Assembly (NCBI RefSeq): GCF_020906515.1
Contig: NC_085849.1
Location: forward strand, 1,364,001 to 1,428,000
Reading direction: 5' to 3'
Origin: Vanrija pseudolonga
Lineage: Eukaryota; Basidiomycota; Tremellomycetes; Trichosporonales; Trichosporonaceae
DNA: 64,000 nt
Shown here one piece after another: positions 20,009 to 24,120 of the stretch; the first letter of the stretch is position 1; each line of letters begins with the position of its first letter. The notes under the pieces are model-generated. The model was not told the DNA's origin. It saw only the letters and a list, made by a program, of their open reading frames with translations, and made no database searches. Position numbers and translations under genes: made by a program.

Positions 20009-23000
20009 ATGCCCTCCTCAAAGTCGTCCCTCGACAAGCGTGACGTCTACTACCGCAAGGGCAAGAGCGATGGTGCGTTGCTTGTCCACTCTTGGCATGA
20101 CTTGCTAGCCTCATATACGGCTCACGTCGTGGTCCAAGGATCACGCAAGGGACATCGAGTCGGACCCACTTGTACCTCTGTCAACGTCCCGGACGAATGA
20201 CGTCCCGCTCAGCCTCCATCTGTCCCCCCTCTCTCTACATTGCAACCTCCATCGGAATGCAGATGCTGACACTTCTTGCTCAGGCTACCGCGCACGATCG
20301 GCGTACAAGCTTCTTCATCTCGGTGGGTAGTCACGGTTTCACACTGTCCTTGAGGCTGGCTAACCTCGCCCAGATGAAGAGTTCGACCTCTTCCGTGGCG
20401 TGACCACAGCTGTTGACCTCTGTGCCGCCCCCGGATCATGGTCTCAGGTCCTTGGACAGCGTTTGAAGTGAGTTGATCAGCATCGGCAAGATTGCTCTCT
20501 CGCCAGTCCTTTACCCCGAAGCTGCCCGCTGACCACCATAGGCCGGGTTTCAACGCTGGTGACAACCGGGTGGTTTCCATCGACCTCCAGCCCATGGTAC
20601 GTGGTCTCTTCATCGTCCAATGGCTGGGGGGGGGGGGGTGGTACCGTGGGGCTGGCGGGCGGCTGTGTCAGGTGCTGCGGATGCGGGCAGAGCTCGGTCC
20701 ACATCTCGGTCCACGGTGGACAAGGCAATGGCCGAGTTTCCCGAAGTTTCTGTTCCCCTGCAGAGCTACTGCCCCGTGTTTGGTCCAAGATGGGGCTGCG
20801 CTCTGTCCTTGTCGGACCAGATCAGCCACCCTGTCGGTGGCGCATTTGCTTCTGTTCTGCGCCTGTTTCAGATCGGACGCATTGCATTGTGCCCAAAGAT
20901 TCGCCCCAAGCTGTGGAGGGCGACGCAAAGCAGAGGCCTCGCTGACCTTCACAGGCCCCTCTTACCGGTCTCACTCTCCTCCAGACTGATATCACTCTTC
21001 CCTCGACTGTACCGCTTGTTCTCGACGCTCTCGGTGGGCGAAAGGCCGACCTCGTCATCTGTGACGGAGCGCCTGACGTCACCGGTGTCCACGACCTCGA
21101 TGCCTACATTCACTCCCAGCTCTTACTCGCCGCTCTCACTCTGAGTCTCACACTCCTCGCGCCTGGGGCGACTCTCATCTTCAAGATCTTCCTGTCACCC
21201 AACGATCCCACGGCAGCTCTCCTTCAATCTCAACTGAGAGCCTTCTTCCCAGCACCACCTCCAGGATCCTCGAGCGGCGACCCGGCTAGCTTTGCCGAGA
21301 TTGAGGACGACGGCGACGACCTTGACCTTGGTCCAGAGGACGACAGCACAGCCCCCGCCGCGCTGGCCAGTACCAGTGCTCCGGGACCTGGCTTCGACTC
21401 CTTTGGTAGGAGAGGAGGAGTTTGGATTCGCAAGCCCCGCAGCAGCCGCAAGGGCAGCGGAGAGGCCTTCGTCGTCTGCCGCAACTTCGACCCAGCTTCC
21501 CTTCCACTTCCGGCTGAGTTTACCCCGGAATCTCTCACTGCTCTCCGGCAGCACGTCGGCGGCACGCTCACTCTGGAGTCACTTGGCTCCTTGGGCACAG
21601 ATTCTTCCTCCGCCACCACTTCCGCAGTCGCCGCCTGGCCTGCAACCAAAGGCTTTGTCGGCACTGGCAATCTGAACAGCGGCAGCTCTCTCTCCGGTCG
21701 TAAGACTCGGCAGGCTCTCAGTTTGGACGTTTCTGGCGGCCCCCATCAACGCGATCATTCGCTGGGCAGCATCGAAGGTGCCCCGAGTCCCGTGGAAGCA
21801 CACCACAACCTTTTCCCATCAACGGACCAATCTCCTGGTCTCGTGCAGCCCAAACCAGTTGCAGCGGTGGACCGCGTGCGTCAGCGGGCAACCTCTGAAT
21901 TTGCCCAAAGTACTCCGAGCTCGGCTTTGGATACATCAGGCATGAACACCCCGGCCGTGTCGACTCCTATCCCATTGCCTTCACCAGTGCCAGGCTTTGC
22001 GCGTGACCATCCATTTCGGGATCACACGTTTCGGAGCTCTCAAGACCATGGCTTTGAGCCAGGTGTTCGCCAGATGCGCGATCTCTCAAGCGACGGCTTT
22101 CACGAGGGCTCTTCGCTTGGGTACAACGATCTGGCGGCCTACTCGCAAGGCCTCAGCCCCACAAGCCTCTCCTCCCTTCATGGTACATCGCCCCTTTCAG
22201 CTACAGGCTGGACAGCACGGGAGAGAGACATTGTTGCGTCAATGCCGCAAGGCGATGGGGCTGTGTCGCCGACGTTGAGTTCATCCTCGAAGACGGACGC
22301 CTTTTTCTCAACTTCTCAACGCGACTCGCTTCCAGTCCCTCCCAGACCTCTCCCAGGCTCGGCCAGTTTGGGGCGTGCAAATTCCCTGGGCCGAGGACCT
22401 GCCCCCGCCCGCGCCCGTGTTGTGACTACACCAGCAGGCCCGGGAGACAACATCTCGTCAACATCGCCGACTTTCACGCAGCCTACTGGTCTGCGCTCAG
22501 TCACCGGCCCCCAACCACCACAGCCTTCCACTCCTCCACCGGCGTTTCCCATCACGTCGACTATTCAAGTCACCTCTCCCGACCCCATCGGCGCGACCCT
22601 TCCTGTCATGTCGCCGCCAAGGGGTGCTCAGGCCAATCTCCCTGTGACACCATCGCCGCTTTCGCCGAAGAGGTCCATGGGCACTTTCCATCCAACAGGT
22701 GGTGATACCAGCCGTCGCGGCGTTTCTCCCCGGCCTACGATCCGCCAGCCGCGGCCTGACAGCTACATTGCGCGTGAGGTGCACCACGCCGAACCTGGCG
22801 AAGTCGCCGTCAAAGCTGGAGATGTCTTGAGCCCTGTGGCCGACGACAGCTTTCCCGTGCGTTCGTCGGAGGCCCCCGGCTCGTGGCGCCTGCGTAGTCT
22901 GCTGGGGCAGGGTGCTTTCGCGAGCGTCTGGTCTGGCGACGCAGAAGGAGACGGCGAGACTCCTCGAGGCACAGTTGCTGCCGTCAAGCTAGTGGACCGC

Positions 23001-24120
23001 GGCGCGTGCACCCGCAACTCGAGAACCGCCATTGCCTTCTACAGAGAGGTCGAGGTTCTCCGGCACCTCGTCCACCCCGGCATCGTTGGGTACTACTGCC
23101 ACTTCTCGACTGATACGCACCACTGCCTGGTGCTGGAGCGCCTTTCTGGCGGTGAACTGTTCTCCCTCGTTGAGGATGAGCGAAACCGTTCACGAATGCT
23201 GCGTGCTGGGCCCGACGACCCCGAGGGCTTCGGTCTCGTCAGGAGGATTTTCGGCGAGCTGGCCCGTGCAGTGTCCTGGCTGCATGAAGTCGAGGTCGTT
23301 CATCGAGACATCAAACTTGAGAGTGAGTACATTAGTGTTTGAGACATTTCAGCTGACTTGTCCAGACATTCTCCTTACCGTGAATCCGTTCTCGCTTCCG
23401 CCAACAGCCACTGGTTCGATCCCCCTGGATCGTCTCCCCGTGCCTCTTGTCAAGCTCACAGACTTTGGCCTGTCGAGATTCATCCGCGCTGATTCGCCAC
23501 TCTTGACTACCAGATGTGGAAGCGAGGCGTTTGCTGCCCCCGAGGTCATCATGGGCAACCTCTACGACGGTCGCCGTACGGACGCATGGGCCCTCGGTGT
23601 TGTTCTTTACGCCCTGGTGGCCGGTGAGCTGCCGTTCGACGCAGATGCTCCTCTTCCACCTGGTCGAGCTCGTGCTGGATCAACTGCCTCTACCGCGTCC
23701 ACTTCAGCATCGGAGAACGCTCGTGAGAACAGGCGACGTACAATGCACCGCATTGCCAAGGGAGAGTATGCCTGGCGCGACGGAGTTGGCACTCCGGCGC
23801 TTCATCGCCTTGTTGCCAGACTCCTTGTTCGCGATCCTTCCCGCCGATCGCGCGTCGCTGAGCTCTGGCAGGAGGAGTGGATGTCGACTGGGCCTGGGGC
23901 TGTGCCGCCGCCTCACGAGCCAATGCCTTCGAAGGCAGCCCCTTCAAGCTCGGCCCAGGCTGGAAGTGAAGACCTCCTTCAGGAAGTCGTTCCCGACATC
24001 CCGCGCCGTGCCAGCGATGCACCGCACGTTGTGGTTCAACATGGCCTTTTGGTCGACCACGAGAGAATCGACGATGTCGCCAGGCAGGACGTGAGCGCCA
24101 ACCAAGCGTACGATCAGTAG
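20009..24120 (+). CDS. TRM7: Fusion of Trm7 tRNA 2'-O-methyltransferase and a protein kinase
   Basis: Exons are 20009-20072, 20284-20322, 20374-20467, 20542-20596, 20955-23322 and 23366-24120, for 1124 residues. Residues 1 to about 280 are an FtsJ-type Trm7, which methylates C32 and N34 in tRNA anticodon loops. The K-D-K-E catalytic set is present (Lys30, Asp121, Lys161, Glu254), with the SAM site VDLCAAPGSWSQVL and CDGAPDVTG. Without any stop the same exon continues into a Ser/Pro-rich linker (about 300-720) and a kinase domain (about 727-1040): GQGAFASVW loop, AAVKLV lysine, HRDIKLEN (867-), DFG (906-908) and AAPE activation end. All kinase catalytic residues are present. The kinase looks CAMK-like, perhaps nearest yeast Prr1. 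Intron 4 is 358 nt. Confidence 0.9.

What the first reader, a model, noticed from the sequence alone, without database searches (positions are those of the whole stretch)
20009..24120. One gene encodes Trm7 tRNA methyltransferase joined to a complete protein kinase
Seen: the Trm7 frame (K-D-K-E set intact) runs on with no stop or needed intron from 20955 to 23322 through a Ser/Pro-rich linker into a kinase with all catalytic motifs. The six exon lengths sum to 1125 whole codons. Established: Trm7 is normally a separate protein of about 300 residues working with Trm732/Trm734, and loss of it activates the general amino acid control pathway. Inference: the fusion could couple anticodon-loop 2'-O-methylation to signalling, or the enzyme could be freed by proteolysis or alternative transcripts. 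I know of no described Trm7-kinase fusion.
Basis: partly seen in the sequence, partly recalled or inferred. Interest (0 to 1): 0.85.

Follow-up and report, generated by a model that had tools for sequence, protein, structure and literature searches.

The report
tRNA methylase fused to protein kinase
In this basidiomycete yeast one gene encodes a single protein that is both a tRNA-methylating enzyme (Trm7) and a protein kinase, and the same joined protein, with both active sites intact, occurs in two orders of fungi including Cryptococcus, so it is a real, old and little-noticed enzyme fusion.

Summary
Six exons (20009-24120) splice by GT-AG into 1124 codons plus stop (119 kDa): a complete Trm7 (FtsJ, aa 23-262), a disordered ~400-aa Ser/Pro linker and a complete Ser/Thr kinase (aa 731-1046). 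It is not an assembly or annotation accident: 26 database proteins from Trichosporonales and Tremellales carry both Pfam domains, and in all 27, window included, the 12 key residues checked are invariant. Trm7 is separate in Filobasidium, Mrakia and Phaffia and the kinase is separate in the other Basidiomycota listed, so one fusion before Tremellales and Trichosporonales split is the simplest history. The join lies at the native Trm7 C-terminus; the kinase brought its own C-tail and part of its N-terminal extension. No other Trm7 was found in the genome. The gene is not unknown: C. neoformans TRM7 sits in a kinase-deletion library (PMC7090016), but my searches found no description of the fusion. 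Why the two are joined is unknown; I favour tethering with co-regulation over neutral retention, weakly. In a C. deuterogattii-like genome the raw frame stops at the junction, suggesting an intron that could choose between Trm7 and Trm7-kinase. No RNA or protein data were available.

The parts
20009..24120 (+). Trm7-kinase fusion gene, 6 exons, start codon to stop
   Evidence: splicing and translation; orthologue P0001 of Vanrija albida 89% identical over 100% of the query
20009..20072 (+). exon 1 (Trm7 N-terminus)
20284..20322 (+). exon 2; carries catalytic K30 (codon at 20307)
20374..20467 (+). exon 3; SAM-binding motif DLCAAPGSWSQV (role recalled)
20542..20596 (+). exon 4
20955..23322 (+). 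exon 5: rest of Trm7 (D121, K161, E254), linker, kinase N-lobe to HRDIKLE
23366..24120 (+). exon 6: rest of kinase (DFG, T-loop, APE) and C-tail
21651..21677 (+). end of the Trm7 part, GFVGTGNLN (aa 317-325); the join follows directly
   Evidence: same motif at the C-termini of separate Trm7 of Filobasidium, Mrakia, Phaffia; junction of the fused proteins
21678..22883 (+). disordered Ser/Pro-rich linker
   Evidence: AlphaFold pLDDT under 50 over nearly all of 316-711 of orthologue P0001; 14.5% Ser, 14.5% Pro
22287..22349 (+). linker motif SKTDAFF...LPVPPRP, also in a few unfused basidiomycete kinases
22494..22511 (+). linker motif RSVTGP, of the form R-[SAT]-x-[ST]-x-P (14-3-3 mode-1-like; resemblance recalled)
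   Evidence: pattern in 26 of 26 fused linkers parsed, shuffled mean 6.4, maximum 14; its R and P invariant in the 26-row alignment
22884..23881 (+). protein kinase domain, aa 728-1046 (Pkinase match starts at 731; the span includes intron 5, 23323-23365)
24043..24090 (+). C-tail motif GLLVDHERIDDVARQD
   Evidence: tail pattern in 24 of 27 fused and 70 of 114 unfused proteins, shuffled means 0.1 and 0.2

Best explanation
The gene makes one 119-kDa bifunctional protein. The N-terminal third is the only Trm7 found in this genome, which would 2'-O-methylate anticodon-loop nucleotides 32/34 of tRNAs such as tRNA-Phe (family knowledge). The C-terminal third is an active-looking Ser/Thr kinase of a family found as a separate gene elsewhere in Basidiomycota. 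The two became joined once, in the stem of Tremellales plus Trichosporonales, when the end of a complete Trm7 was linked in frame to the N-terminal extension of a complete kinase, and the joined form has been kept since. Most likely working: a flexible tether fixes the kinase 1:1 to Trm7 and its partner complexes, so that kinase location and amount follow the tRNA-modification machinery; the kinase would be switched on through its T-loop Thr (T922) and could act on Trm7, its partners or nearby translation factors. Shown by sequence: the fusion, intact active-site residues, no second Trm7 found, the spread of the fusion, a linker predicted to be disordered. Inferred: single-chain expression, both activities. 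Speculative: the coupling.
For: Gene structure and open frame; both Pfam domains; best solved relatives FTSJ1 and yeast Trm7 rather than Spb1 or mitochondrial enzymes; 26 database proteins with both domains, all from Tremellales or Trichosporonales (orders and, for Cryptococcus, Tremella and 'Tremellales sp.', from the name or recall); 12 key residues invariant in 27 of 27; of 3 FtsJ loci in the genome one is Spb1 by DUF3381 and one a single-domain FtsJ protein that I read as Mrm2; unfused Trm7 in Filobasidium, Mrakia, Phaffia; unfused kinases elsewhere in Basidiomycota; trees of each half group the fused rows; join at the native Trm7 C-terminus; C-tail shared with 70 of 114 unfused kinases, SKTDxFF-type motif with a few; AlphaFold: two folded ends, disordered middle; Foldseek finds kinases and FTSJ1.
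Against: No RNA, protein or activity data. Retention alone can be neutral. In a C. deuterogattii-like genome the raw frame ends at the junction (P0196, 32 members), and another Tremellales-like ORF (P0195) does too, so the chain may not be continuous everywhere. The trees are quick searches with long branches; the label 'fused' needs 3 and 2 changes, not 1. If Trm7 activity is important, as in two yeasts (PMC5892943 passages), a TRM7 deletion without evident in vitro phenotype in C. neoformans (PMC7090016 passage) is odd.
Confidence: 0.55

Rival explanations
1. Real fusion, no coupling: two independent enzymes share a chain by historical accident, and re-splitting is rare because each half would need a new promoter, start or terminator.
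For: Both halves evolve like complete independent proteins (Trm7 93%, kinase 94%, linker 86% identical to V. albida; 67, 58 and 34% to C. neoformans); the linker is long and predicted disordered; the kinase's own tail and part of its extension were kept.
Against: No clear split copy was seen in the two orders within capped searches; the R-[SAT]-x-[ST]-x-P pattern is in 26 of 26 fused linkers parsed but not enriched in unfused extensions (10 of 74 against 17.7 in shuffles), which hints at a fusion-clade function of the linker. The pattern was chosen after seeing the alignment.
Confidence: 0.3
2. The locus gives two products: Trm7 alone (intron retention, early polyadenylation or proteolysis) as well as the fusion.
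For: C. deuterogattii-like raw frame P0196 ends at ...VKAYVGGGDL, while the deposited model P0028 reads ...VKAYVGGGDF and goes on; TTG+stop against TT|GT.. plus T/C fits an intron donor at the junction (codon argument of mine). P0195 ends at GSGDLK.
Against: Window, P0002, P0029 and P0030 are unbroken through the junction; no candidate intron and no AATAAA/ATTAAA in 21678-22890, with a scan that passes 5 of 5 real introns; without the branch-site demand one donor (21876) pairs with nine acceptors, one of them frame-keeping. DNA of P0195 and P0196 could not be read.
Confidence: 0.12
3. Artefact: sequencing or gene-model error joining neighbouring genes.
For: Many gene models are automatic; several other FtsJ chimeras in the list (Lon protease, SQD2 and others) look like such errors to me.
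Against: 26 database proteins, raw frames without gene modelling, and invariant motifs in both domains and in the linker.
Confidence: 0.03

Closest known systems
Trm7 / FTSJ1 (tRNA Cm32/Nm34 2'-O-methyltransferase)
   Same: FtsJ domain, K-D-K-E, best solved relatives FTSJ1 (8y2o) and yeast Trm7 (6jp6); C-terminal GDL motif
   Different: Acidic insert (aa 184-239 unaligned) before the RKPRSSR strand; lacks the further C-terminal tail seen in P0275 and P0308; continues into a kinase
Basidiomycete 'kinase-like' proteins (Agaricomycetes, Dacrymycetes, Pucciniomycotina, Ustilaginomycotina)
   Same: Kinase domain 39-59% identical in the listed rows outside the fused clade, C-tail in 70 of 114, SKTDxFF-type motif in a few
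   Different: No FtsJ domain in any of the 118 newly listed proteins (Pfam as listed; no AAPGSW or RKPRSS); at least four of these (P0072, P0073, P0074, P0186) look like fragments from genomes of the fused clade
AMPK/MARK/SNF1-type kinases
   Same: Best PDB sequence matches; T-loop L-x-T-x-C-G-S with a Thr where AMPK has T172 (recalled)
   Different: No UBA, KA1 or AMPK regulatory domain reported by Pfam; long disordered N-terminal extension
C. neoformans TRM7 in the kinase deletion library (PMC7090016)
   Same: Very probably the orthologue: C. neoformans protein P0025 has both domains and is named as the tRNA methyltransferase
   Different: Treated there as a kinase gene tied to tRNA modification; the passages I read do not mention a fusion, and I saw no gene number that proves the identity

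Membership tests
Trm7/FTSJ1 | FtsJ-type methyltransferase domain | tested here: met
   PF01728 5.7e-41
Trm7/FTSJ1 | K-D-K-E catalytic tetrad | tested here: met
   K30, D121, K161, E254; 27 of 27 fused proteins, (tetrad recalled)
Trm7/FTSJ1 | Closer to Trm7 than to Spb1 or Mrm2 | tested here: met
   208 and 185 bits to FTSJ1 and Trm7, 97.7 or fewer to FTSJ3/SPB1 and mitochondrial enzymes
Trm7/FTSJ1 | Partners Trm732 and Trm734 encoded in the genome | not tested
   The genome search for PF10350 did not complete in 14 tries; Trm734 was not tried
Trm7/FTSJ1 | Methylates tRNA positions 32 and 34 | not testable with these tools
   needs tRNA mass spectrometry
Active eukaryotic protein kinase | Lys, alpha-C Glu, HRD Asp, Asn, DFG Asp, APE Glu (and T-loop Thr) | tested here: met
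   seven residues invariant in 27 of 27; Pkinase 1.9e-44
Active eukaryotic protein kinase | Phosphotransfer activity | not testable with these tools
   needs an assay
Basidiomycete kinase family of the fused half | C-tail shared with unfused members | tested here: met
   24 of 27 fused (not P0003, P0020, P0027), 70 of 114 unfused, shuffled means 0.1 and 0.2; a first, stricter pattern gave 1 of 26 and 21 of 114
Basidiomycete kinase family of the fused half | N-terminal SKTDxFF shared with unfused members | tested here: inconclusive
   KT[DE]xFF in only 5 of 74 unfused extensions (0 in shuffles); present in Malassezia and some Agaricomycetes but not general
AMPK/SNF1 family | AMPK regulatory or UBA/KA1 domains | tested here: not met
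   only Pkinase, FtsJ and the overlapping PK_Tyr_Ser-Thr reported

The most novel reading that the evidence does not exclude
The fusion is a switchable unit: in at least some Tremellales an intron sits exactly where Trm7 used to end, its donor supplying a stop codon, so unspliced message gives free Trm7 and spliced message gives Trm7-kinase; the tethered kinase then reports on or tunes anticodon-loop methylation, a tRNA-modification-linked signalling route parallel to Gcn2.
Probability: 0.1. Interest if true: 0.88.

Novelty: new variant of a known kind. Interest (0 to 1): 0.62.

Why it matters
Trm7 loss switches on the general amino acid control pathway in two yeasts (PMC5892943, abstract and passages). 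A lineage that has physically tied its apparently sole Trm7 to a protein kinase throughout Tremellales plus Trichosporonales (26 database proteins) is a natural experiment on whether tRNA modification and signalling are coupled. It also bears on how published C. neoformans data are read: a 'kinase' deletion called trm7 may remove a tRNA methyltransferase as well, and its reported lack of an evident in vitro phenotype needs checking against the growth defect in yeasts.

Tried and rejected
Artefact and read-through error: rejected by 26 database proteins with both domains and by raw frames.

Hidden intron or poly(A) site in the window's linker: 2 donor-like sites, 1 branch-like site, 0 candidate introns, no AATAAA/ATTAAA in 21678-22890. 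The same scan passes 5 of 5 real introns of the gene; without the branch demand one donor at 21876 pairs with 9 acceptors, one frame-keeping.

Second Trm7 elsewhere in the genome: only Spb1 and a single-domain FtsJ gene besides this one. The search is six-frame without introns and its tool says that counts of large families are lower bounds.

Malassezia caprae P0167 is named as the tRNA methyltransferase by its source, which suggested a second fusion; I see only a kinase in it (Pfam), so I took the name as an error.

Codon-usage test of the linker: inconclusive.

Searches were capped: one search scored 7987 candidates; one search listed 120 of 849, 120 of 4623. For the kinase tree I used 36 of the 118 newly listed kinases (plus 27 fused rows); P0052 and P0053 were dropped. 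For the Trm7 tree I used 20 of the 120 listed. Both trees are 'quick'; the label 'fused' needs 3 changes in the kinase tree (unmodelled ORFs P0072 and P0073 fall inside) and 2 in the Trm7 tree (Filobasidium-like rows and P0195 are not separated), and the Trm7 tree carries a warning of meeting long branches. Where the kinase lies in Filobasidiales and Cystofilobasidiales, and whether it is next to Trm7 in outgroups, I could not find out: I recognised none among the 120 rows.

In one search the C. neoformans linker (P0025) was not parsed and is left out of 'of 26'; P0072, P0073 and P0186 were left out of 'of 74'. Strict KT[DE]xFF is in 23 of 26; the other three have SRTDLFF. All linker and tail patterns were chosen after looking at the alignments; for the C-tail a stricter first pattern gave 1 of 26 and 21 of 114 before the one reported.
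Full report
What is there. The window lies at C1:1364001-1428000 of a 24.9-Mb, 9-contig genome. The gene at 20009-24120 has six exons with GT-AG introns of 211, 51, 74, 358 and 43 nt; they give 1124 codons and a stop. The closest protein is from Vanrija albida (P0001, 1136 aa, 89% identical over the whole length), a trichosporonalean yeast, so the window is probably a Vanrija (inference). Pfam finds FtsJ at 23-262 and Pkinase at 731-1046. 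The Trm7 part is closest among solved structures to human FTSJ1 and yeast Trm7, and further from Spb1 and mitochondrial enzymes (208 and 185 against 97.7 bits or fewer); the kinase part is closest to MARK/AMPK-type kinases.

Is it more than chance or error. Exon 5 is open for 2368 nt in one frame, with 9 to 30 stops in the other five; 9 of 5000 first-order simulations of the linker were free of in-frame stops. Much stronger, of 71 proteins found with the fusion as query, 26 (P0001, P0003-P0027) carry both Pfam domains; they belong to Vanrija, Cutaneotrichosporon, Cryptotrichosporon (Trichosporonales), Kwoniella, Kockovaella, Naematelia (Tremellales), Tremella, Cryptococcus and one 'Tremellales sp.' (order by name or recall). 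Four more rows (P0002, P0028, P0029, P0030) have the kinase domain by Pfam plus the end of the Trm7 part by my reading. Raw frames P0002, P0029 and P0030 run unbroken through the junction. One search scored only the 7987 candidates sharing most words, so absence elsewhere is not proved.

Both enzymes look alive. In the alignment of 27 fused proteins K30, D49, D121, K161, E254 of Trm7 and K762, E782, D869, N874, D906, T922, E933 of the kinase are invariant, 27 of 27 (residue roles recalled). Identity to V. albida is 93% for Trm7, 86% for the linker, 94% for the kinase; to C. neoformans 67, 34 and 58%.

Anatomy of the join. Separate Trm7 proteins of Filobasidium, Mrakia and Phaffia end at or a few residues after a G-x-x-L motif of the GGDLS kind (GDLDCGR, GGDLSAWD, GGDLS). 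In the fused proteins printed the same motif (GGDL, GTGNL, GSGDL and the like) is followed by poorly conserved linker. So a whole Trm7 was joined. The kinase also came nearly whole: a C-tail pattern is in 24 of 27 fused and 70 of 114 unfused kinases, and the linker motif SKTDxFF, present as TDxFF in 27 of 27 database proteins (P0001, P0003-P0028) and in the window, is also in unfused Malassezia, Gloeophyllum and a few others (T[DE]xFF in 9 of the 118 new rows, three of them probably fusion fragments). It is not general: 5 of 74 unfused extensions have KT[DE]xFF. A second pattern, R-[SAT]-x-[ST]-x-P, is in 26 of 26 fused linkers parsed (shuffled mean 6.4, maximum 14) but in 10 of 74 unfused extensions (shuffled mean 17.7); it resembles a 14-3-3 site (recalled) and may be a property of the fused clade. 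These patterns were picked after seeing the alignment. AlphaFold on 26 fused proteins gives two folded ends and pLDDT under 50 for almost all of 316-711; mean pLDDT is low (55.5), so domain packing cannot be judged. Foldseek matches the model to kinases (Aurora A first, then MARK, SIK, AMPK and others) and, at rank 10, to FTSJ1.

History. Kinase-domain tree (63 rows): the 27 fused rows plus two unmodelled ORFs form one group (SH-aLRT 99), apart from the other basidiomycete kinases. Trm7 tree (47 rows): the fused rows group with two Filobasidium-like rows and P0195 (99), with Mrakia and Phaffia outside (long-branch warning). The simplest reading is one fusion before Tremellales and Trichosporonales parted and after Cystofilobasidiales (Mrakia) branched off; whether Filobasidiales never had it or lost it is not resolved.

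Only Trm7 found. A six-frame search found three FtsJ genes (four matching places, two of them exons of this gene): this one, Spb1 (DUF3381) and a single-domain FtsJ gene. So the organism's tRNA 32/34 methylation probably depends on the fused protein.

What is known. Seven literature searches of the held library listed no paper that, by title or abstract start, describes a Trm7-kinase fusion; only 5 papers hold both 'trm7' and 'Cryptococcus'. PMC7090016 (passages) lists TRM7 among deleted kinases of C. neoformans: reduced score for survival in mouse brain, no evident in vitro phenotype, grouped under tRNA modification. PMC5052723 (passages) says library genes were checked for kinase domains by Pfam, which fits the fused protein; 'trm' does not occur in its main text. 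PMC8963569 (passages) measured C. neoformans Trm7 transcripts, the gene found by similarity to yeast; those passages do not mention a kinase. PMC5892943 (abstract and passages) reports poor growth of trm7 mutants in two yeasts. PMC13299246, a 2026 Trm7 review (passages), has 0 occurrences of fusion, fused, basidiomyc- and Cryptococcus. The absence of an evident in vitro effect in C. neoformans is unexplained: the deletion may leave the Trm7 half, or this fungus tolerates its loss.

How it may work. I favour a tethered pair: Trm7 with its partners places the kinase at the tRNA-modification machinery, and T-loop phosphorylation turns the kinase on. This is inference. Neutral retention is a serious rival.

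An unexpected lead. Raw frame P0196 (32 members) is a C. deuterogattii-like Trm7 (88% over 206 residues to P0028, unspliced stretches included) and stops at ...VKAYVGGGDL, whereas the deposited C. deuterogattii model P0028 reads ...VKAYVGGGDF and continues into the kinase. L-stop in the raw frame and F in the model fit a codon TTG+stop cut as TT|GT, that is, an intron starting exactly at the old Trm7 end; a nonsense change bridged by an artificial intron in the model would look alike. If it is an intron, retention would release Trm7 with its ancestral end. The window has no such intron by the scan (control). I could not read the DNA concerned.

Noticed in passing
window 24442-24775, minus strand: Downstream convergent gene encodes a VMA21-like V-ATPase assembly protein (PF09446, 1.5e-13, on two pieces I joined by hand).
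   Followed up: partly
window 25495-26601, plus strand: WD40 protein with a MIOS_WD40 match (2e-8, just over its cut-off), perhaps the SEA-complex subunit Mio/Sea4 (name recalled).
   Followed up: partly
P0167 (Malassezia caprae), P0089: Kinases without an FtsJ domain that bear the source name of the tRNA methyltransferase: the fusion seems to leak a wrong name into database entries. P0089 may itself be a fragment of a fusion.
   Followed up: partly
P0195, P0196, P0028: Raw Trm7 reading frames in some Tremellales end exactly at the Trm7/linker junction.
   Followed up: partly
window 20626-20638: A run of 13 G inside the 358-nt intron 4; harmless to the reading frame but a possible sequencing weak spot.
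   Followed up: no
Trm7 part, aa 184-239 (in exon 5): Acidic low-complexity insert before the RKPRSSR strand, not aligned to human or yeast Trm7 and poorly conserved between the fused proteins.
   Followed up: no
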